DNA of 64,000 bases, from the NCBI GenBank assembly GCA_022340465.1, contig JAJDNW010000024.1:1-64000 (forward strand). The letters are read 5' to 3'. Below, one piece after another: positions 51,971 to 60,586 of the stretch; position 1 is the stretch's first letter, and each line of letters starts with the position of its first letter. The notes under the pieces were generated by a model that did not search any database, was not told the origin of the DNA, and saw nothing but the letters and a program-made list of their open reading frames with translations. A program made the translations under genes and the position numbers. The stretch is from Deltaproteobacteria bacterium (GTDB taxonomy: Bacteria > Desulfobacterota > Desulfobacteria > Desulfobacterales > B30-G6).

Positions 51971-54900
51971 TCAGCGATTCGTTGCCTTTTCGTCAACCAA
52001 AAAGGGCAGCCTGATGGTGAAAGTGGTACCCTCCCCTACGGTTGACCTGACGTCTATTTCACCTTGATTCTCTTCGATAAGCTTATGGGTCACGAGCAGC
52101 CCCAAACCGGTGCCCTTGGCTCCCTTGGTGCTGAAAAATGAAGAAAACAGTTTTTCCTTGACCTCTTCGTCCATGCCGCAACCGTTGTCTTCCACTTCAA
52201 GGACGACGAAGCGTTCCTCAAGTCTAGTGCGGACATGAACCGTATGTTTTTTATCGATGCTATCGTCGAAAATACAGGCGTCGATCGCATTCCCGACTAG
52301 GTTCAGCAAGGCCCGGTGCACGGTGGTCGGATCTAAAATTACCTCACCGATCTGATCGGAAAAGTTTTTTACGATCTCGATTTCATAATCCTGGGCGTTT
52401 CCCCGGACAAGTTCGCAGACATCGTCGGCGATCTCACTGGGATTGCACGGTTTATATTCAGGCTCTCTTTCCTTGGAATATGAAAGCAGGTCCATGACCA
52501 GCTCCGAGGTCTGATCTATGTTGCGCTTTATCATATCCCATCCATTTTTTAACTTATCGACGTTATTTTTGTCAATGCCGATGTCTACGAGGTAGCGCCC
52601 ACCCTTGAAGCCGTTCAGTATATTTTTTATGCCGTGGGCCATGCCGGCAACCGTCTGGCCCACCGCCGCCAGGCGTTCGGCATTGAGCAGCTCCCTCTGC
52701 AGATTTTTGATTTCCCGAATGTCCTGGAAAAAAGCCACGCTGCCCATCATCCGGCCTTTTTCGAACAGCGGCGCACAGGAGAAGTTGACCGGGATCATTT
52801 CTCCTTTTTTCGATTGTATCAGCGCCTCCTTCCAAGTGGTAAGTTCTGCCAGCCGCCTGTTTTCCACCTTTTCCTGGATGGACGTGATGAATGCTTCCGG
52901 AAGGAGGTCCCGGGCATCCATGGCGCCGACAACATCGTCAGCCGCAAAGCCAAACAGCCTTTGGGCTTCGGGGTTGTACATCACGATATTCCAGTCGGCA
53001 TCCGTGGCGACAATACCATTGTTGGAGCTGTGGATCAGCTTGGCCTGGAAATTGGCCCTGCGTTTGATCTCTTCCTGAAGCGTGGCGTTCTCCATGGCCA
53101 CGCCAATACGGTTGCCGGTCAGTTCGAGGATCTGTTTTTCACCCGTGTGGAACTGGCTGGAATTCCTGCTGCCGGCCCGAATGACGCCGATGGCCTTGTT
53201 TTCTTTGCCCACTAGCGGGATGTAAACCAGAGAATTCAGACCAGCCGCTTTCAAGTGCTCGATTTCGGCGTCCGTCTGGTCGTCCAGATTTTCAAAAAGT
53301 GCCAGTTTCCCGGAGCGCCCTACCTGAGAAATGCAGCTGATGCCGCTTTCCCCGTTTTCCAGATCGTCAATGCTGCAGACGGCATCCGGGGAGCCGAAAC
53401 TGTACTTCAGCTGATAGGTGCCGTCCGCTTCCAGGGAAAAAACACAAATGACATCGAAGGCGAAAATGTTGGTTATCTCCTTCAGGGCTTCTTCAATTCT
53501 TCCCTGGAGGTCCAGGGGGGCGCTGAGGGTCGAATAAATGGAGCAGAGGGTGGCGAGTTCCTGGGTGTGCCGGGCCTGCTCCTGTTCGGCATGCTTCTCC
53601 TCGGTTTTGTCCCAAAGCGTTTCGATGGCACCCACCACGGTGCCGTCCGGATCGGTCAGAGGCGCGGCCGTGAAGAACAGCCACTTGCCTTCATCGCCCA
53701 TGTGTTCGAAAAACTCCTCGGCTTCATAGGCACCCCGGATCAGGTCCGATTTTTTCCAACGGGTGCTGTAGTAGCGCCAGACCTCTTCTTCATTGACGCC
53801 ATCGAGAACCAGGTCCGCCATGACAGGCCTTTCCTGAAGCCGGAAGGGCTTCCACTGCTTCCTGGTTCCCACCATCTCTTCAGCGGAAAACCCGGTCAGC
53901 TTTTCGCATGCCCGGTTCCAGTGGGTCACCTTGTGGTCTCTATCGATGACGAAGGTAGGGATGGTGCTGCCCTGGATGATCTGGGCCATGGCTTCTTTAC
54001 TGGCCAGAAGCGCTTTGGTCTGCTGGGACAATTCCCGGTTGTGGCGGTCCAGCTCGAACTGCGCATTTTTTTCCTCGCTTTTGTCCCAGAGCGTTTCGAT
54101 GGCACCGATGATTTCCCCTTCAGGGGAGCGGATCGGTGCGGCCGTAAAAAAACACCACCTGCCGTTTTCCCCCAGGTGGGGAAAGAAGATTTCGGCCTCA
54201 TAGGCACCGTCGATCAGGGCCGACTTTCGCCATTTCGAACCGTACAGGTTTTTTATCTCACGTTCATCGGTCTGGTCCAAGATGACGTCGGCCATTGCCG
54301 GCCGTTCGCTGTCCCAGAACGGCATCCACTGCTTATTGGTTCCCACCATCTCCTCGCCGCGGCACCCGGTCAGGTTTTCCAGGGCTTTGTTCCAGTGAAT
54401 GATGGTGTGTGTTTTGTCGATGACGAAGGTAGGGATGGTGCTGCCCTGGATGATCTGGGCCATGATTTCATGGCTGGCGGCCAGTTCCCTGGCTTTTTCC
54501 TTCAGTTCGATGTTGTGGCGCTCGCGTTCTTCCTGGGCGCGTTTTTCTGCGGTCTTATCCCATAGGGTTTCGATGGCGCCGATCACCAGTCCTTCTGCAT
54601 TCTTTATGGGCGCTGCCGTAAAGAAAAGCCACTTGCCGTTCTCCCCCAGGTGGTCGAAGTACTCTTCCGCTTCGAATGCGCCTTGAATCAGTTCCGACCG
54701 ATTCCATTTGGCCCCGTAATACCGCCACACCTCTTCTTCGCTGACGCCGTCGAGAATGAGATCGGCCATGATGGGCCGCTTTTCCGGCCTGAACGGTTTC
54801 CAGTGCTGTCGGGTACCGATAATTTCGGTGGCCGGATAGCCGGTGAGTTTTTCGCAGGCGCGGTTCCAGTGCGTCACGGTGTGCGATTTGTTGATGACGA

Positions 54901-55450
54901 AGGTGGGAATGGTACTTCCCTGCACGATCTGCGCAAGGGCTCTTTCGCCGGCCAGAATTTCCTTGCGGTTGATCAGCGTGTAGGTGTCCTTGCGCCTGGA
55001 GGTTTCGACGATGAAGGTGTAGAATTCGTCGAAGAGCGCTTCTATTTTTGAAAAGTCATCCCTGTGCTGTTGCAGTTTTTCGAAAATGTCCCGCTTTTTA
55101 TTCTTGACGTGCAGGCGGTCGAGCAGTGCGCGGGCCTCGAAAAAGTCAATGAATTGGACACTGGCCGGTTTGCTGCGTTTTATTTCCTCGCCAACGGCAA
55201 TGTCTTTGGTCAGTTCGACGATCAGGCGAAGGCCTTCCAACCGGTACAGCTCCTTGTAGTCGCTGGTGGTGAAAATGCCGTTTTTCTTTGCATAGAGCCG
55301 TCCCACGGCATATGGATTGGGGTCGGCGACGCCAAGTACCTGGGTTCCATTGCCGCCATTTTCGCTGTCGAAAAGTGCTTCTAAAAGGGCCTTGCAGAAT
55401 CTTCCCCCGCCGACAATGGCGATATTGATATTTTTCAAGATGGAAGTCAT
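51971..55450 (-). CDS. multi-PAS/GAF sensor histidine kinase with N-terminal Rossmann domain
   Basis: 1159 residues from ATG 55450 (AAGGGCAAC upstream). Order: a Rossmann-like domain (NINIAIVGGGRFCKALLEAL, about 5-110), rare in kinases and perhaps binding NAD(P) or a CoA-type ligand; a coiled coil; three near-identical PAS modules (each with QGSTIPTFVI and W[NK][RK][AS]); a GAF domain; a fourth PAS; then DHp with MAHGIKNILNG, N-box NLVGNAIDAC, DNGCGMDEEV and GTGLGLLVTH. There is no transmembrane segment, so it senses a cytoplasmic signal. It starts 10 bases after the antiporter gene and precedes the response regulator, suggesting that it controls ion or stress responses. Confidence 0.92.
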   Translation of the reverse strand: MTSILKNINIAIVGGGRFCKALLEALFDSENGGNGTQVLGVADPNPYAVGRLYAKKNGIFTTSDYKELYRLEGLRLIVELTKDIAVGEEIKRSKPASVQFIDFFEARALLDRLHVKNKKRDIFEKLQQHRDDFSKIEALFDEFYTFIVETSRRKDTYTLINRKEILAGERALAQIVQGSTIPTFVINKSHTVTHWNRACEKLTGYPATEIIGTRQHWKPFRPEKRPIMADLILDGVSEEEVWRYYGAKWNRSELIQGAFEAEEYFDHLGENGKWLFFTAAPIKNAEGLVIGAIETLWDKTAEKRAQEERERHNIELKEKARELAASHEIMAQIIQGSTIPTFVIDKTHTIIHWNKALENLTGCRGEEMVGTNKQWMPFWDSERPAMADVILDQTDEREIKNLYGSKWRKSALIDGAYEAEIFFPHLGENGRWCFFTAAPIRSPEGEIIGAIETLWDKSEEKNAQFELDRHNRELSQQTKALLASKEAMAQIIQGSTIPTFVIDRDHKVTHWNRACEKLTGFSAEEMVGTRKQWKPFRLQERPVMADLVLDGVNEEEVWRYYSTRWKKSDLIRGAYEAEEFFEHMGDEGKWLFFTAAPLTDPDGTVVGAIETLWDKTEEKHAEQEQARHTQELATLCSIYSTLSAPLDLQGRIEEALKEITNIFAFDVICVFSLEADGTYQLKYSFGSPDAVCSIDDLENGESGISCISQVGRSGKLALFENLDDQTDAEIEHLKAAGLNSLVYIPLVGKENKAIGVIRAGSRNSSQFHTGEKQILELTGNRIGVAMENATLQEEIKRRANFQAKLIHSSNNGIVATDADWNIVMYNPEAQRLFGFAADDVVGAMDARDLLPEAFITSIQEKVENRRLAELTTWKEALIQSKKGEMIPVNFSCAPLFEKGRMMGSVAFFQDIREIKNLQRELLNAERLAAVGQTVAGMAHGIKNILNGFKGGRYLVDIGIDKNNVDKLKNGWDMIKRNIDQTSELVMDLLSYSKEREPEYKPCNPSEIADDVCELVRGNAQDYEIEIVKNFSDQIGEVILDPTTVHRALLNLVGNAIDACIFDDSIDKKHTVHVRTRLEERFVVLEVEDNGCGMDEEVKEKLFSSFFSTKGAKGTGLGLLVTHKLIEENQGEIDVRSTVGEGTTFTIRLPFLVDEKATNR

Positions 55451-55460
55451 GTTGCCCTTT

Positions 55461-56996
55461 TTACCATAAAAAGAAAACAAGTGTTACCAATATAAAAGAG
55501 GGTATCAGAAAAACCAATGAATATTTCAGGATGTAGCCGAAAAAGCTGGGCATGGGGGTGCCGGCTTCTTCCGCGATGGATCGAACCATGAAGTTGGGTG
55601 CATTGCCGATGTAGCTGCAGGCACCGAAGAAAACGGACCCGGCTGAAATTGCCTGTAGATATATGGCCTTATCGGTCATAAGCAGGGGCACGGCCTGGGC
55701 TTCGGTCAATTCCGAGTAGAAGCTTCCCAGGGCGGTATTGAAAAAGGTAAGGTATGTGGGCGCATTGTCCAGGAAGCTGGAAAGCGCACCGGTTACCCAG
55801 AAATAGTGCCAGGGCTTTTCAACCGCACCGATCAGAAACCCGAGGGCGCCGTGGGAGCCCGCCTTGAGAATCAGCAGGCAGGGTATCATGGTGATGAAAA
55901 TGCCGATGAAAAGGTAGGCGACTTCAACAATGGGAAACCAGGTAAAGTCGTTGTCGTCGCGGAGCCGGGAGGGGGTGGCCAAGAGCGAAGCGATTCCCAG
56001 AAAAACCAGCAGGCCGTCTCGAACCCAATCCTGAATCGCCCTGTGGATTCCCAGGGTGGAGATTTCCCCCCAGTCCACCATACCGCTCATGAGTACGGAT
56101 CCGACAACGCCTGCCAGCAGGATGAAGTTGTATACCCCTTCCAGTTTGAGCGGTTGCTTTTCCCCCGTTTCATCGGGATGAGGAGCGCCTTCTTTGCGGT
56201 AGAAATAGGTGTCGAGCAGGAAATAGATTATCAGTAACAGTACCGTCACCAGCAGCATGTGGGGCAGGATTTTGAAGGTCCAGAAAAAGGTAACGCCATG
56301 GAGGAAGCCCAGAAATAGCGGGGGATCCCCCAAGGGTGTCAGCGATCCACCGATGTTTGCTATCAGAAAAATGAAAAAAACCACCATGAAGGTACGGCTT
56401 TTGCGGTAGCTGTTGGCCCTTAAGAACGGGCGAATCATCAGCATGGCGGCCCCGGTGGTGCCCATCCAGGAAGCCAGCAGCGTTCCCAAGAGGAGCATGG
56501 CCGTGTTGACGACCGGCTTTCCGCGTAGTGTGCCTTTCAGAAGAATTCCGCCCGAAACCGTGTAGAGGGACCACAGCAGTATGATAAAGGGAACGTAATC
56601 GGCGAGGACAATGTGCAGAATTTCATAAGCCGCCCCGCCCCTGAAGGCGATCAGAAAGGGGATGCCCATGGAAGCCGCCCAGAATGCGGATATCTTGCCG
56701 AAATGATGATGCCAGAAATTGGGCAGAAGCAGAGGCATCAGGGCGATGGAGAGCAGCATGCAGGCGAAGGGGATACAGCTCCACAAGGGAAGGCGTTCCC
56801 CCAGGTTGGCATGCCCTTCTTTTTCGTGGCCGCTACCGGAGGGCGTGAGTCCGGCAGGGTCCTGGCTGTGCGTATCTGTTGATGCTTCCGACGAGTGCCC
56901 TTGCGCGTGGGAGCGTGTTGCTGAACCGAGAACCAGAAATGAGATCAGGGATAAACAGATGGTTGCAAACGCCGCACACCGTATCAGAGGTCTCAT
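55461..56996 (-). CDS. NhaD-type Na+/H+ antiporter family protein
   Basis: 511 residues from ATG 56996 (AAGGAAAC upstream). There is an N-terminal signal-like helix and a His-rich periplasmic segment, then about 11-12 helices. NTAMLLLGTLLASWMGTTGA, IANIGGSLTPLGDPPLFLGF and SSFLDNAPTYLTFFN are typical of the NhaD/citrate-transporter ion-transport superfamily. It probably exchanges Na+ for H+. It is divergent from the F0 operon whose c-subunit carries a sodium-type site, and is followed by the large histidine kinase. Confidence 0.87.
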   Translation of the reverse strand: MRPLIRCAAFATICLSLISFLVLGSATRSHAQGHSSEASTDTHSQDPAGLTPSGSGHEKEGHANLGERLPLWSCIPFACMLLSIALMPLLLPNFWHHHFGKISAFWAASMGIPFLIAFRGGAAYEILHIVLADYVPFIILLWSLYTVSGGILLKGTLRGKPVVNTAMLLLGTLLASWMGTTGAAMLMIRPFLRANSYRKSRTFMVVFFIFLIANIGGSLTPLGDPPLFLGFLHGVTFFWTFKILPHMLLVTVLLLIIYFLLDTYFYRKEGAPHPDETGEKQPLKLEGVYNFILLAGVVGSVLMSGMVDWGEISTLGIHRAIQDWVRDGLLVFLGIASLLATPSRLRDDNDFTWFPIVEVAYLFIGIFITMIPCLLILKAGSHGALGFLIGAVEKPWHYFWVTGALSSFLDNAPTYLTFFNTALGSFYSELTEAQAVPLLMTDKAIYLQAISAGSVFFGACSYIGNAPNFMVRSIAEEAGTPMPSFFGYILKYSLVFLIPSFILVTLVFFLW

Positions 56997-57317
56997 GAGC
57001 GAGTTTCCTTTTACCTGCGCTATTAATGGGAAATACACCTCCAAAAAAGCATATTCGCTTTGAAGTTTCAATAATTATATGAATATTGGTCATTAAAAGA
57101 TTTGTTATTAATTTATGAACATACGTTGCGACCGCTGTTTTTGATTGCAGGGGGTCTTCGCAAACCGGGCGTTGCGGGTGATTTCGCGTGTCGGTCCTGG
57201 CCGCGGGAAAATTTACTGGCATCACCGAATTAACCGTTGCAATATTCTTCTGATGTGTTATCAGGGAAAACTGTTCAAAATCCGGTAAAGCTAATATCGT
57301 AAATCCGGCAAGATCTC

Positions 57318-57551
57318 ATGTTCTTCAACTATAAAAAGAACAGGGTATGGGCCGAAAACCTGTCCATCGTCATGCAGATCGGGCTGACCATGGCAGGGTG
57401 TATCTGTTTTTGCTTTTTTATCGGTCTCTATCTCGATCGCTGGCTGGGCACCCGGGGTATCCTGACGGTTGTGTTCATTTTGCTCGGAGTGGCGGGGGGC
57501 GCCAATGTCGTCTACCGGCAAATTATACATGTTACGAAAGACAGGGAATAG
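57318..57551 (+). CDS. atpZ: AtpZ-like F0 accessory protein
   Basis: 77 residues with two membrane helices (IVMQIGLTMAGCICFCFFIG and GILTVVFILLGVAGGANVVY) and a short charged start, the AtpZ/AtpI-like pattern at the head of atp operons. AtpZ is thought to help with AtpI in c-ring assembly or ion supply. Its stop abuts the next start with no gap. The ribosome site is weak. The 246 bases before it include a candidate TTGCAA/TATCAG promoter that I would not press. Confidence 0.82.
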   Translation: MFFNYKKNRVWAENLSIVMQIGLTMAGCICFCFFIGLYLDRWLGTRGILTVVFILLGVAGGANVVYRQIIHVTKDRE

Positions 57552-57959: not shown

Positions 57960-58634
57960 ATGGGTGAATTAGGCTTAATACATCAACTGATCATTCCCTT
58001 TCTGGGGCATAACATCACCATCAACCTGGAAGTCGTGGCGATGACCTGGATCGTTTTCGCTTTTCTGGTGGTGGTGGGGATCTTGTCCACCCGTAAAAGA
58101 AGCATTTTCCCCCGATCGATGCAGATGTTCGGTGAATTGTTCGTCAATCAGTTTTACGGTCTCACCGAAGATGCCCTGGACAAGGAAATGGCCAAAAAAT
58201 ACGGCCCCCTCATCTGCGCGCTTTTCATGTTTCTTGTACTGGCCAACTGGCTGGGTATCATCCCACATCTGGAAGAACCCACCAAGGATCTCAACACCCC
58301 ACTAAGCCTCGGGCTGATGGGGTTTGTCATCGCCCACTATGCCGGTATCAAGACAAAAGGATTTAAAGCCTATGTAAAGGAATACATGGAGCCGATGTTT
58401 TTCATGGCACCCTTGAACATTATCGGGGAGCTTGCCAAGATTGTGTCCATTTCATTTCGGCTTTTCGGCAATATCATGGGCGGCTCCATCATCATACTGG
58501 TGGTTTCCCATCTGACCTACAGCATCGTCCTGCCACCCTTGCTGAACGCTTTTTTCGGTCTCTTTGTGGGCACCATACAGGCTTTCGTGTTCACCATGCT
58601 TACCGTGGTCTATATATCGGTTCAGGTCAAATAA
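57960..58634 (+). CDS. atpB: F-type ATP synthase subunit a
   Basis: 224 residues. Six helices; the essential arginine sits in SISFRLFGNIMGGS (Arg 167). GELAKIVSISFRLFGN is the diagnostic subunit-a block. It forms the ion half-channels against the c-ring. A short form of the family, as is common in Desulfobacterota. It is followed three bases later by the four-hairpin c gene, so translation is coupled. Confidence 0.93.
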   Translation: MGELGLIHQLIIPFLGHNITINLEVVAMTWIVFAFLVVVGILSTRKRSIFPRSMQMFGELFVNQFYGLTEDALDKEMAKKYGPLICALFMFLVLANWLGIIPHLEEPTKDLNTPLSLGLMGFVIAHYAGIKTKGFKAYVKEYMEPMFFMAPLNIIGELAKIVSISFRLFGNIMGGSIIILVVSHLTYSIVLPPLLNAFFGLFVGTIQAFVFTMLTVVYISVQVK

Positions 58635-58637
58635 GCT

Positions 58638-59612
58638 ATGGAATTTGAAACTCAACTTATCATAAAAGCGGCCGCATTTACGGGTGCGGGGATTGCCATG
58701 GGACTGGGGGCCATCGGGGCCGCCATCGGCGAAGGCTATACGGCTGCCATGGCCAATGACGCCGTCTCCAGAAATCCGGAACTGTCCGGCGAAATTTTCA
58801 AAAACATGCTGGTCGGTCAAGCGGTTGCAGAGTCGGCCTCTATTTTCGCACTGGTGATTGCCATTTTGATGCTGTTTCTGGGTGTACCCCTGGACAACCT
58901 CTTGGAAGGCGCATCCATGTTCGGCGCGGGCCTCTGTATGGGTTTCGGTGCGGTTGGCTCCGGTGTCGGGTCTGGATTCCCGGGCGGACAGGCCTGTGTC
59001 GGCATTGCCAGGCAGCCGGCCGTCACATCGCGTCTGACCACCAACATGCTTATCGGGTCGGCCGTCTGCCAAACACCGGCAATTTTTTCAATGGTGGTAG
59101 CCCTGATGCTGATTTTCATGAACTTTGGCCAGCTGCCGTTGGCCCCGACCTGGGCCGCGCTGATCGGTGCAGGATTAAGCACCGGACTGGCGGCTATCGG
59201 GTCAGGATATGGCGGCGGTCTGGCTGCAGGATCAAGCTGCGAGGGTATTGCTAGGCAGCCGGAGTCGGTCGGTAATGTAACCACCGTTATGCTGGTAGGG
59301 CAGGCGGTTGCTCAGACACCGTCCATTTTTGGGTTGCTGGTCAGCTTTATCCTGCTGTTTAAAAAGTTTCCTGAATCTTCCACACTGCAGGCCGCAATGG
59401 CATTGCTGGGCGCCGGTCTGTGTATGGGATTGGGCGGCATCGGACCGGGTGTCGGCAACGGTATGGCGGCTGAGGGTGCCGTTCGATGGGTGGCCAGAAA
59501 AGTCAACAGGTCCGGTGAACTGATGCGGATCATGCTGGTGGGACAGGCGGTTTCTCAATCTACGGCTATATATGCCATGGTGATTGCGTTGGTCCTTATT
59601 TTTGTAGTTTGA
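58638..59612 (+). CDS. atpE: ATP synthase c-subunit of four fused hairpins (one with carboxylate)
   Basis: 324 residues, about four times a normal c-subunit: four repeats near 1-81, 90-160, 170-241 and 250-324, giving eight membrane helices. Each repeat has the glycine-rich first helix (GAG..MG.GAIG) and a second helix with GQAV or its variant. The ion-binding carboxylate is present only in repeat 1 (GQAVAES, Glu 65, plus Glu 32 in GEG). The equivalent positions are Gln 145 (SAVCQTP), Gln 226 (GQAVAQTP) and Gln 307 (GQAVSQST), with Ser, Gly and Asn in the first helices. It is therefore a multi-hairpin rotor subunit with one ion site, formally like A. woodii c1 or V-type c but twice as long. 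The gene is a clean reading frame with no frameshift. Confidence 0.93.
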   Translation: MEFETQLIIKAAAFTGAGIAMGLGAIGAAIGEGYTAAMANDAVSRNPELSGEIFKNMLVGQAVAESASIFALVIAILMLFLGVPLDNLLEGASMFGAGLCMGFGAVGSGVGSGFPGGQACVGIARQPAVTSRLTTNMLIGSAVCQTPAIFSMVVALMLIFMNFGQLPLAPTWAALIGAGLSTGLAAIGSGYGGGLAAGSSCEGIARQPESVGNVTTVMLVGQAVAQTPSIFGLLVSFILLFKKFPESSTLQAAMALLGAGLCMGLGGIGPGVGNGMAAEGAVRWVARKVNRSGELMRIMLVGQAVSQSTAIYAMVIALVLIFVV

Positions 59613-59726
59613 CAAATGGCGGTGAAAAATGCCCAATTTCGACGTTACGCGAATTTCGTTGCTATTTAAACGTACAAAACTGTACGCCTCATAACACAAA
59701 ATTCGCGGTGCCTTGAACTTGAACAT

Positions 59727-59756
59727 TTTACACCACCATGAACACAGAATTATAAT
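59727..59756 (+). promoter_or_regulatory. internal promoter for the single-hairpin atpE
   Basis: TTTACA (59727-59732), 18 bases, TATAAT (59751-59756). It lies within the 214-base spacer between the two c genes and would let the normal c be made separately from the fused one. Confidence 0.5.
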
Positions 59757-59772
59757 ATTAACTCATTAACCA

Positions 59773-59813
59773 GCGGCGAAGCCGCGTAAAATAAATTCGC
59801 TTCCAGCGAATTT
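59773..59813 (+). promoter_or_regulatory. two stem-loops in the leader of the single-hairpin atpE
   Basis: GCGGC-GAA-GCCGC (59773-59785) and AAATTCGCT-TCC-AGCGAATTT (59793-59813), the second with nine perfect pairs directly before the GGAGGTG ribosome site at 59816. They may set translation or mRNA stability of the c gene relative to its neighbours. A third hairpin, GTAC-AAAACT-GTAC, lies further upstream. Confidence 0.55.
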
Positions 59814-59826
59814 ATGGAGGTGAAAA

Positions 59827-60075
59827 ATGGCTATTGAAGGCATTGATATTGTAAAAGCGGCAGCTTTTCTCGGAGCTGGAATTTCCATGGGTTTAGGCGC
59901 TATTGGACCCGGTGTGGGCGAAGGCATGGTTGCAGCCAAAGCATGTGAAGCGATCGGTAAAAACCCAAGGGAGGCCGGTCTTTTAACCCGAACCATGCTC
60001 GTTGGCCAGGCGGTTTCGGAATCCACCGGCATCTATTCACTGGTTATCGCGTTGCTGCTACTCTTCGTGGTCTAA
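59827..60075 (+). CDS. atpE: F-type ATP synthase c-subunit with sodium-type two-carboxylate site
   Basis: 82 residues, a normal two-helix c-subunit with a strong GGAGGTG site. Helix 1 has IGPGVGEG (Glu 32), helix 2 GQAVSESTGIYSLVIAL (Glu 65, Ser 66, Thr 67, Tyr 70). This matches the sodium-binding motif of Ilyobacter/Fusobacterium c-subunits; Glu at 32 together with Glu 65 is the two-carboxylate form described for Fusobacterium nucleatum. Na+ coupling is therefore likely, but not proven by sequence alone. It has its own promoter and structured leader. Confidence 0.95.
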   Translation: MAIEGIDIVKAAAFLGAGISMGLGAIGPGVGEGMVAAKACEAIGKNPREAGLLTRTMLVGQAVSESTGIYSLVIALLLLFVV

Positions 60076-60130: not shown

Positions 60131-60586
60131 ATGCAGATTATCAGCAATGTTGCCCTGATCAGCATTAATGAAACCCTGGTGGTTCAGCTGATCTCCTTCT
60201 TGATATTCCTCTTTGTCATCAATCGGGTCATGTTTCGCCCGTTGCGCGAATCGATGCAGGAACGGGAGCATTACATAGAGGGGATCCAGCTGGAGATTCG
60301 GGATGCGGAAAGGAAGCTGCAGAAAATCATGTTGGAAACCAGGGAGGAAGATGCCGCCGTACGCCGGGCGGGGCAGCAGGTGGCCGCCGAATTGGAAAAG
60401 CAGGCTTCCACGGAAGCGTCGGACATTATTGAGGGCGTCAGACAGCAGATCCTAGAGATGGGCGAGAAAAATCGAAAGGAGATCGATGCCCGCGTCGCCG
60501 AGGCGCGCAAAACGATCGCCGAGGAGGCGGACAAGTTGTCGTTGAGTATCATGGAAAAGGTTCTCGAGAGGAGACTGGCATCATGA
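60131..60586 (+). CDS. atpF: ATP synthase subunit b' (AtpF-type)
   Basis: 151 residues: one N-terminal helix (LVVQLISFLIFLFVINRVMF) and then a long charged coiled coil (RESMQEREHYIEGIQLEIRD and on to the end), the peripheral stalk. The last four bases overlap the start of the next b-type gene. With that gene it makes a b/b' heterodimer, as in alphaproteobacteria and other Desulfobacterota. Confidence 0.9.
   Translation: MQIISNVALISINETLVVQLISFLIFLFVINRVMFRPLRESMQEREHYIEGIQLEIRDAERKLQKIMLETREEDAAVRRAGQQVAAELEKQASTEASDIIEGVRQQILEMGEKNRKEIDARVAEARKTIAEEADKLSLSIMEKVLERRLAS

What the first reader, a model, noticed from the sequence alone, without database searches (positions are those of the whole stretch)
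58638..59612. Four-hairpin rotor c-subunit carrying a single ion-binding carboxylate
Seen directly: four c-like repeats in one uninterrupted frame, with Glu 65 (and Glu 32) only in repeat 1; the matching positions are Gln 145, Gln 226 and Gln 307. Known: Acetobacterium woodii uses a two-hairpin, one-site c1 with normal c-subunits, and eukaryotic V-type c is also two-hairpin; multi-hairpin archaeal forms exist. I do not know of a four-hairpin, one-site c within an F-type operon. Inference: building it into the ring would remove three ion sites per copy, lowering ions per turn and hence ions per ATP. That could favour ATP-driven ion pumping, or could tune the enzyme to a low ion-motive force.
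Basis: partly seen in the sequence, partly recalled or inferred. Interest (0 to 1): 0.92.

Follow-up and report, generated by a model that had tools for sequence, protein, structure and literature searches.

The report
Rotor subunit with mostly blanked sites
Many sulfate-reducing bacteria and their relatives carry a second membrane motor for ATP synthase whose rotor includes a long fused piece in which most ion-carrying positions have been switched off in an orderly way, which may give the cell a second gear for exchanging ions and ATP.

Summary
In detail: window 58638-59612 is an intact 324-aa chain of four c-type hairpins with Glu32/Glu65 in hairpin 1 and Gln145/226/307 in the others. It belongs to a family: 134 non-redundant proteins of 2-6 hairpins and 1-3 carboxylates; the key residue is Glu (202) or Gln (342) in 544 hairpins, nothing else. 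Sites vanish as whole units: Glu65 in a hairpin goes with Thr67+Tyr70 in the preceding hairpin in 55 of 69 cases, against 1 of 341 for Gln. Median dN/dS is 0.06. The operon is a second Fo without F1; the genome has one F1 and a conventional Fo. In 10 of 34 loci outside the order the same Fo carries the F1 genes, and there the conventional a-c locus shows neither b nor F1 in the stretch held. Best reading: a Na+-type mixed rotor, mostly c with some c4, on an F1 shared with the conventional Fo, moving fewer ions per ATP. Ring make-up, ion, F1 sharing and direction are inferred. Closest known: Acetobacterium woodii c1 (two hairpins, Glu then Gln).

The parts
57318..57551 (+). small membrane protein, AtpZ/AtpQ-like (77 aa), first gene of the Fo operon
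   Evidence: Pfam PF09527 ATPase_gene1 62.6 bits
57552..57947 (+). AtpI/AtpR-like protein (131 aa)
   Evidence: Pfam PF03899 ATP-synt_I 33.9 bits
57960..58634 (+). Fo subunit a, essential Arg in RLFGN kept
   Evidence: PF00119 171.8 bits; Arg in 129 of 129 aligned cN-type a subunits (the window's own row was not among them, its SFRLFGN is read)
58638..59612 (+). four-hairpin c subunit (c4), pattern Glu-Gln-Gln-Gln
58731..58733 (+). codon of Glu32, first carboxylate of hairpin 1
58830..58832 (+). codon of Glu65, principal carboxylate of hairpin 1
59070..59072 (+). codon of Gln145 (hairpin 2, site lost)
59313..59315 (+). codon of Gln226 (hairpin 3, site lost)
59556..59558 (+). codon of Gln307 (hairpin 4, site lost; Ser308-Thr309-Tyr312 kept)
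59827..60075 (+). single-hairpin c subunit with full Na+ ligand signature E32 V63 E65 S66 T67 Y70
   Evidence: PF00137 67.5 bits; signature in 115 of 118 single c subunits most like it
60131..60586 (+). subunit b'
   Evidence: PF00430 48.1 bits
60583..61188 (+). subunit b
   Evidence: PF00430 52.2 bits

Best explanation
The protein is a fused rotor subunit of a second, Na+-type Fo motor. It takes its place in a mixed c-ring together with the single-hairpin c encoded next to it, c probably being in the majority. Each Na+ site in such a ring lies between two neighbouring hairpins; in c4 three of the four interfaces have been disabled as complete units, so every copy built in removes three ion steps per turn. 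This Fo has its own a, b and b' but no F1, and most likely docks on the cell's only F1, which also serves a conventional (probably H+) Fo. The cell would thus own two membrane motors with different ion and different ions-per-ATP for one catalytic head. The low-site motor suits ATP-driven Na+ pumping to a high gradient, or ATP synthesis only when the Na+-motive force is high. Shown: sequence pattern, conservation, operon, gene counts. Inferred: ring composition, ion, sharing of F1, direction.
For: Glu or Gln only at the key place, 544 hairpins of 134 ORFs. Glu32 in 197 of 202 Glu65 hairpins and in 0 of 342 Gln65 hairpins. Cross-hairpin rule: Glu65 of hairpin i with Thr67+Tyr70 of hairpin i-1, 55 of 69 against 1 of 341; no association within the same hairpin (p=0.93), as expected from the Fusobacterium ring, where Val63 and Ser66 of the adjacent subunit join Glu32 and Glu65 (PMC3692424, passages). 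The last hairpin keeps the Ser/Thr/Tyr set in 132 of 134 whatever its own Glu/Gln, as if it always abuts a Glu hairpin. The F1-facing Arg-x-Pro loop is largely kept. Gene order whole in 75 of 80 named loci. One F1, two Fo: of the 29 relatives with this gene and at least one gamma, all 29 have more a than gamma genes; of 22 without it, 1; same excess in 7 of 7 genomes reached from named loci and exactly one in 32 of 34 further genomes with the gene. In 10 of 40 loci, all 10 outside the order, the same Fo operon carries delta, alpha, gamma, beta; in 9 of those genomes, and in 3 whose fused-c operon is cut, the conventional a-c locus shows neither b nor F1 in the stretch held. c has the stronger ribosome-binding site in 64 of 78 operons. 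Closest solved chain: A. woodii c1, with the same Glu-then-Gln order.
Against: In Bacillus PS3 a single Glu-to-Gln change in one of ten fused hairpins abolishes ATP synthesis and pumping (stated in PMC8809890, passages); here 3 to 5 neighbouring Gln hairpins would have to pass subunit a. There are no ring, protein or expression data. 14 of 69 Glu hairpins break the Thr/Tyr rule, 8 of them with the same Gln-Pro-Leu form in the preceding hairpin. Hairpin 1 itself has Ala67 and Phe70. The rows are related: on well supported branches only four independent pairs test the rule, and 33 of 136 inner branches of that tree are well supported. cN-type a lacks the acidic residue at Arg+9 in 126 of 129, where the ten conventional a subunits compared have Glu, Asp or His, so the ion path is not ordinary. 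Sharing of F1 rests on gene counts and gene order alone; no gamma was found in 7 of the 36 relatives with the gene (six drafts and one single-contig assembly rated 79% complete), and the 34 genomes have no matched control without the gene. Several genomes also hold a second, weaker-scoring gamma (about 100-210 bits), so there a second F1 exists.
Confidence: 0.6

Rival explanations
1. A brake: c4 enters the ring in small numbers and stalls rotation through its site-less arc, so the second Fo is a switchable plug or inhibitor rather than a motor.
For: One Glu-to-Gln change kills the Bacillus PS3 enzyme (PMC8809890, passages). c is likely translated more strongly than c4.
Against: The bookkeeping between hairpins keeps the remaining sites whole, which a plug does not need. 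Clostridium aceticum, which has a c1 with a Gln hairpin, shows Na+-dependent ATPase activity (PMC7911925, passages). In 10 of 40 loci the gene lies in an F1Fo operon.
Confidence: 0.12
2. The second Fo works without F1, as an ion-conducting or ion-sensing rotor of its own.
For: No F1 gene was seen near the operon in the 80 named loci except one weak 29-bit hit in L125; 53 of the 80 hold at least 3 kb beyond b.
Against: It keeps b, b' and most F1-facing loops, and related operons carry delta, alpha, gamma and beta.
Confidence: 0.1
3. The ring is built of the fused subunit alone (for example three c4 giving 12 hairpins and one ion per 120-degree step), and the single c belongs to an alternative ring.
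For: The last hairpin keeps Ser/Thr/Tyr, which would also fit the next subunit being another cN.
Against: Five hairpins per chain do not divide a ring of, say, 11 or 12; a single c lies beside the fused gene in the operons and has the stronger ribosome-binding site in 64 of 78.
Confidence: 0.12
4. A dispensable duplication under relaxed selection.
For: Hairpin number and site pattern change often (at least 17 and 38 changes on the best tree).
Against: Median dN/dS 0.06, range 0.025-0.133, in 50 pairs that are not independent of each other; only Glu or Gln at the key place.
Confidence: 0.03

Closest known systems
Acetobacterium woodii c1 of the hybrid Na+ c-ring (PDB 4bem)
   Same: F-type c fused in tandem, Glu in hairpin 1 and Gln in hairpin 2; ring partner of a normal c (4bem holds c1 and c2); best hit by sequence and by fold. 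It also follows the Thr/Tyr rule: ETSGIF, then QTTGIY.
   Different: Two hairpins, not four; one lost site, not three; Gln in the place of Glu32; its operon has its own F1 (recalled).
Fusobacterium nucleatum two-carboxylate Na+ c-ring (PDB 3zk1)
   Same: Glu32 plus Glu65, Val63, Ser66, Thr67, Tyr70, as in the single c of this operon (PMC3692424, passages).
   Different: Single hairpins, every site kept.
Archaeal multi-hairpin c subunits (Methanopyrus kandleri, 13 hairpins)
   Same: Many hairpins in one chain (PMC2359735, passages).
   Different: V/A-type enzyme; in M. kandleri every hairpin keeps its full Na+ ligand set (same passages).
V-type two-hairpin c/K (Enterococcus hirae and others)
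   Same: Tandem hairpins with ligands lost and one ion per chain in E. hirae (PMC2359735, passages).
   Different: V-type; further by fold (Foldseek E about 1e-3 against 1.5e-6 for A. woodii c1).
Extra 'ectopic' Fo set of Desulfococcus oleovorans
   Same: A full second Fo complement in a related bacterium, a and c grouping with Thermotogae (PMC4154653, passages); possibly the same operon, not checked.
   Different: Reported as one species' duplication; no multi-hairpin c is mentioned in the passages I saw.
N-ATPase
   Same: Small genes before a (atpR named in PMC4154653, passages).
   Different: No F1 in this operon; a, b' and single c score far below the alternate-F1F0 cut-offs.

Membership tests
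F-type ATP synthase subunit c | matches to the c-subunit profile over cut-off, one per hairpin | tested here: met
   PF00137, four stretches, 201.6 bits against 24; TIGR01260 154.5 bits against 43.95
F-type ATP synthase subunit c | encoded with an F-type subunit a that keeps the essential Arg | tested here: met
   PF00119; Arg in 129 of 129 related a subunits, and read in the window's a
A. woodii-type hybrid-rotor c1 | tandem chain with Glu in hairpin 1 and Gln in hairpin 2, with a normal c beside it | tested here: met
A. woodii-type hybrid-rotor c1 | exactly two hairpins | tested here: not met
   four hairpins here, 2-6 in the family
A. woodii-type hybrid-rotor c1 | present in a measured ring with the normal c | not testable with these tools
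   needs protein
Two-carboxylate Na+ c (F. nucleatum type) | Glu32, Val63, Glu65, Ser66, Thr67, Tyr70 | tested here: met
   single c: 115 of 118. c4 hairpin 1 alone does not have the set (Ala67, Phe70); by inference its neighbour in the ring supplies Thr and Tyr
Two-carboxylate Na+ c (F. nucleatum type) | Na+ binding measured | not testable with these tools
   needs protein
N-ATPase | own F1 genes in the operon | tested here: not met
   no F1 gene in the operon
N-ATPase | score over the alternate-F1F0 profiles | tested here: not met
   a 127.6 of 302.1, b' 30.6 of 224.7, b 25.7 of 224.7, single c 65.2 of 130.85 bits; c4 passes TIGR03322 (153.9 of 130.85) as a sum over four repeats
Archaeal multi-hairpin A-type c | A/V-type operon | tested here: not met
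   F-type a, b, b' beside it

The most novel reading that the evidence does not exclude
A two-gear ATP synthase: one F1 shared by two exchangeable membrane motors, a conventional one and a Na+ one whose gear ratio evolution adjusts by fusing 2-6 hairpins and switching whole ion sites off (or on) at the interfaces, with up to five neighbouring hairpins without a site.
Probability: 0.5. Interest if true: 0.95.

Novelty: new variant of a known kind. Interest (0 to 1): 0.86.

Why it matters
Ions per ATP is a basic number of bioenergetics and is usually thought of as set by ring size. This family appears to change it by blanking sites inside a fused rotor subunit, in graded steps that can be compared across living relatives, and in genomes that keep a second, conventional Fo beside a single F1. 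That makes two questions testable: how many adjacent neutral hairpins a rotor can tolerate, and whether cells swap membrane motors on one F1.

Tried and rejected
Decay, chance and assembly error were rejected. N-ATPase membership was rejected. I first called the upstream minus-strand gene NhaD-like from memory; Pfam names it CitMHS_2, putative citrate transport, and NCBIfam has no match, so I draw no Na+ argument from it. A link between Lys at Arg-7 of subunit a and Na+ was considered and dropped, since by recall E. coli has Lys there too. Whether sites were lost or gained is not resolved: the tree counts do not depend on a root. The second structure job was not used, and I could not put names on the G-handle genomes. 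Rows dropped: one search removed identical or contained copies and kept ORFs with at least two hairpins (score over 5, at least 40 positions); one of the 134 (L022) is cut at a contig end and shows Gln only. One search left out 5 of the 134 for want of an a subunit in the stretch, among them the window's own row (held there as L001). One search used pairs of 85-98.5% identity with dS between 0.2 and 2.

Full report
What is there. Window 58638-59612 (+) is an open frame of 324 aa with four ATP-synt_C stretches. The hairpins are spaced 80, 81 and 81 residues apart. Hairpin 1 has Glu32 and Glu65; the equivalent pairs are Ser112/Gln145, Gly193/Gln226 and Asn274/Gln307. AlphaFold2 on an alignment of 27 sequences gives pLDDT 94.9 and pTM 0.90, helical throughout. 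Both the sequence search and Foldseek put Acetobacterium woodii c1 first among solved structures.

Operon and genome. The gene lies in a row of seven: PF09527 protein, ATP-synt_I protein, a, c4, c, b', b. No F1 gene is in it. The genome holds one gamma and one alpha-beta pair of full strength (273 and 252 bits; two further PF00006 matches score about 90), on another contig with b', b and delta, and a second Fo locus, Z-I-a-c, on a third contig. So there are two Fo sets and one F1.

Spread. The gene was found (E<=1e-30) in 36 of 58 relatives, the window's own genome included, in 166 of 389 genomes drawn from the class and in 43 of 395 drawn from the phylum. The full gene order was seen in 75 of 80. 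Of the other five, L101, L106, L116 and L143 run into the end of the stretch; L089 is cut downstream and lacks a whole a gene upstream although sequence is held there.

A graded series. Counting hairpins with a profile built from these repeats gave 134 non-redundant ORFs: EE 1, EQ 3, EQE 4, EQQ 5, QQQ 1 (cut at a contig end), EQEE 8, EQEQ 1, EQQE 41, EQQQ 50, EQQQE 6, EQQQQ 8, EQQQQQ 6. The key residue is Glu in 202 and Gln in 342 of 544 hairpins and nothing else. The helix-1 Glu is present in 197 of the 202 Glu hairpins (exceptions: Gln twice, Ile, Leu, Lys) and in none of the 342 Gln hairpins. The named loci were found with two short patterns, one of which allows only Glu or Gln at the key place of one hairpin; the loci of the genome search were not, and all hairpins of each ORF were then read.

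Whole sites are lost. In the Fusobacterium nucleatum ring Na+ is held by Glu32 and Glu65 together with Val63 and Ser66 of the adjacent subunit; Tyr70 binds Glu65 and Thr67 the water (PMC3692424, passages). If a site is shared by two hairpins, loss of a site should show in both. It does: where hairpin i has Glu65, hairpin i-1 has Thr67 and Tyr70 in 55 of 69 cases; where it has Gln, in 1 of 341 (Fisher p 9e-54). Within the same hairpin there is no association (p 0.93). The last hairpin keeps Ser66, Thr67 and Tyr70 in 132 of 134 whether or not its own Glu is kept (one of the two exceptions, L201, is cut at a contig end), and the first hairpin read, which nearly always faces a Gln hairpin, lacks the Thr/Tyr pair in 133 of 134; the one that has it is the EE protein, whose hairpin 2 has its Glu. 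A. woodii c1 obeys the same rule (ETSGIF, then QTTGIY, in the alignment). Against it: 14 exceptions among the 69, 8 of one form; and the rows are related, so the p-value overstates. On the a-subunit tree the hairpin-4 state changes at least 12 times among 98 four-hairpin rows, but only four independent pairs lie on well supported branches; there the Thr/Tyr state goes the same way in 3.7 of 4 on average and the other way in 0.0. Hairpin number needs at least 17 and the whole pattern at least 38 changes on that tree, of whose 136 inner branches 33 are well supported.

Selection. dN/dS in 50 pairs of four-hairpin genes has median 0.060, range 0.025-0.133 (the pairs overlap). The loop that faces F1 keeps Arg in 308 and Pro in 279 of 342 Gln hairpins.

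Ion type. The single c most like the window's has E32, V63, E65, S66, T67, Y70 in 115 of 118 (two have Gln32; one reads Ala32 and Gln65); the conventional c has Leu at 67 in 23 of 23. By established knowledge of c-rings the first is a Na+ signature; that the second is H+ is an inference. The cN-type a keeps the essential Arg in 129 of 129 but has Ser or Ala in 126 of 129 at Arg+9, where ten conventional a subunits have Glu, Asp or His.

One F1, two Fo. Of the 36 relatives with the gene, 29 have a gamma; all 29 have more a than gamma genes, exactly one more in 27 once a matches below the family cut-off are left out (G005 has two such operons; G053's a is in pieces). Of the 22 without the gene, one does (G052, whose extra Fo has only a single c). 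In 7 genomes reached from named loci the excess is one in 7 of 7. Of the 43 phylum genomes I took the 34 outside the order: the excess is one in 32, none in G631, two in G704 (G618 counted with a gamma fragment below the cut-off). Some genomes hold a second, weaker gamma with its own a, probably of an N-ATPase (inference). Of 40 loci read (34 outside the order, 6 inside), 10, all outside, have the fused-c operon going on into delta, alpha, gamma and beta. I fetched the conventional locus of 9 of those 10 genomes and of G515, G542 and G631, whose fused-c operon is cut by a contig end: it is Z-(I)-a-c with no b, delta or F1 hit in the stretch held, 12 of 12, though L217, L218 and L221 end close by. 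In four other genomes F1 stands with b' and b apart from the fused-c operon (G431, G526, G667, G714). So the single ordinary F1 is linked to the fused-c Fo in some families and to a stand-alone b'-b pair in others, and in the former the conventional a and c have no stalk genes of their own nearby. The simplest account is that one F1 serves both; further b genes elsewhere in those genomes were not searched for.

Mixing ratio. The c gene has a better ribosome-binding site than the fused gene in 64 of 78 operons, a worse one in 3 and an equal one in 11. This suggests a ring mostly of c, as in 4bem with nine c2 chains to one c1. As arithmetic only: a ring of 11 hairpins with one EQQQ subunit has 8 sites, 2.7 ions per ATP; with one EQQQQQ, 6 sites, 2.0. 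Fewer ions per ATP need a higher ion-motive force for synthesis and let ATP hydrolysis pump against a higher one.

The hard point. In Bacillus PS3 one Glu-to-Gln change in a fused ten-hairpin ring stops synthesis and pumping (PMC8809890, passages). A. woodii and Clostridium aceticum have a Gln hairpin in c1, and the C. aceticum ATPase depends on Na+ (PMC7911925, passages), so one appears tolerable; for three to five in a row I found no precedent. A brake is therefore a live rival.

What is in print. I searched the held open library and saw listings with the beginnings of abstracts, and passages of the papers named here (also PMC11887813, which reports an abundant sodium-pumping Rnf2 complex in Desulfobacteraceae). 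In what I saw, none described an F-type c of more than two hairpins or a graded loss of sites. An extra Fo set in Desulfococcus oleovorans is reported (PMC4154653, passages). Subscription papers, among them the review of hybrid rotors by Brandt and Mueller, were not seen.

Noticed in passing
window 51971-55480 (-) and 55464-57071 (-): A PAS-repeat protein ending in a histidine-kinase-like domain (by reading, no profile run) and a CitMHS_2-family transporter stand beside the Fo operon; proteins most like the two occur in 17 and 10 of the 80 named loci.
   Followed up: partly
L014 and L046 (genome G005): One genome carries two such operons, one with four hairpins (EQQQ) and one with five (EQQQQ).
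   Followed up: no
L032 and L054/L089 (genomes G037 and G039): Two draft genomes share a four-hairpin gene with only a piece of a in front of it although sequence is held upstream; a rearrangement or a chimeric contig.
   Followed up: no
L061 and L092: Two single-hairpin c genes follow the fused one.
   Followed up: no
L053 (genome G052): The same F1-less Fo operon without any fused c, only a single c.
   Followed up: no
L082 and L206: Hairpin 1 has Gln32 in place of Glu32, the ligand of other Na+ rings.
   Followed up: no
window 59613-59826: A gap of 214 bases lies between c4 and c; in relatives the gap ranges from 16 to 340 bases.
   Followed up: partly
window 57960-58634 and relatives: cN-type subunit a lacks the acidic residue at Arg+9 (126 of 129 Ser or Ala), yet keeps the essential Arg.
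   Followed up: partly
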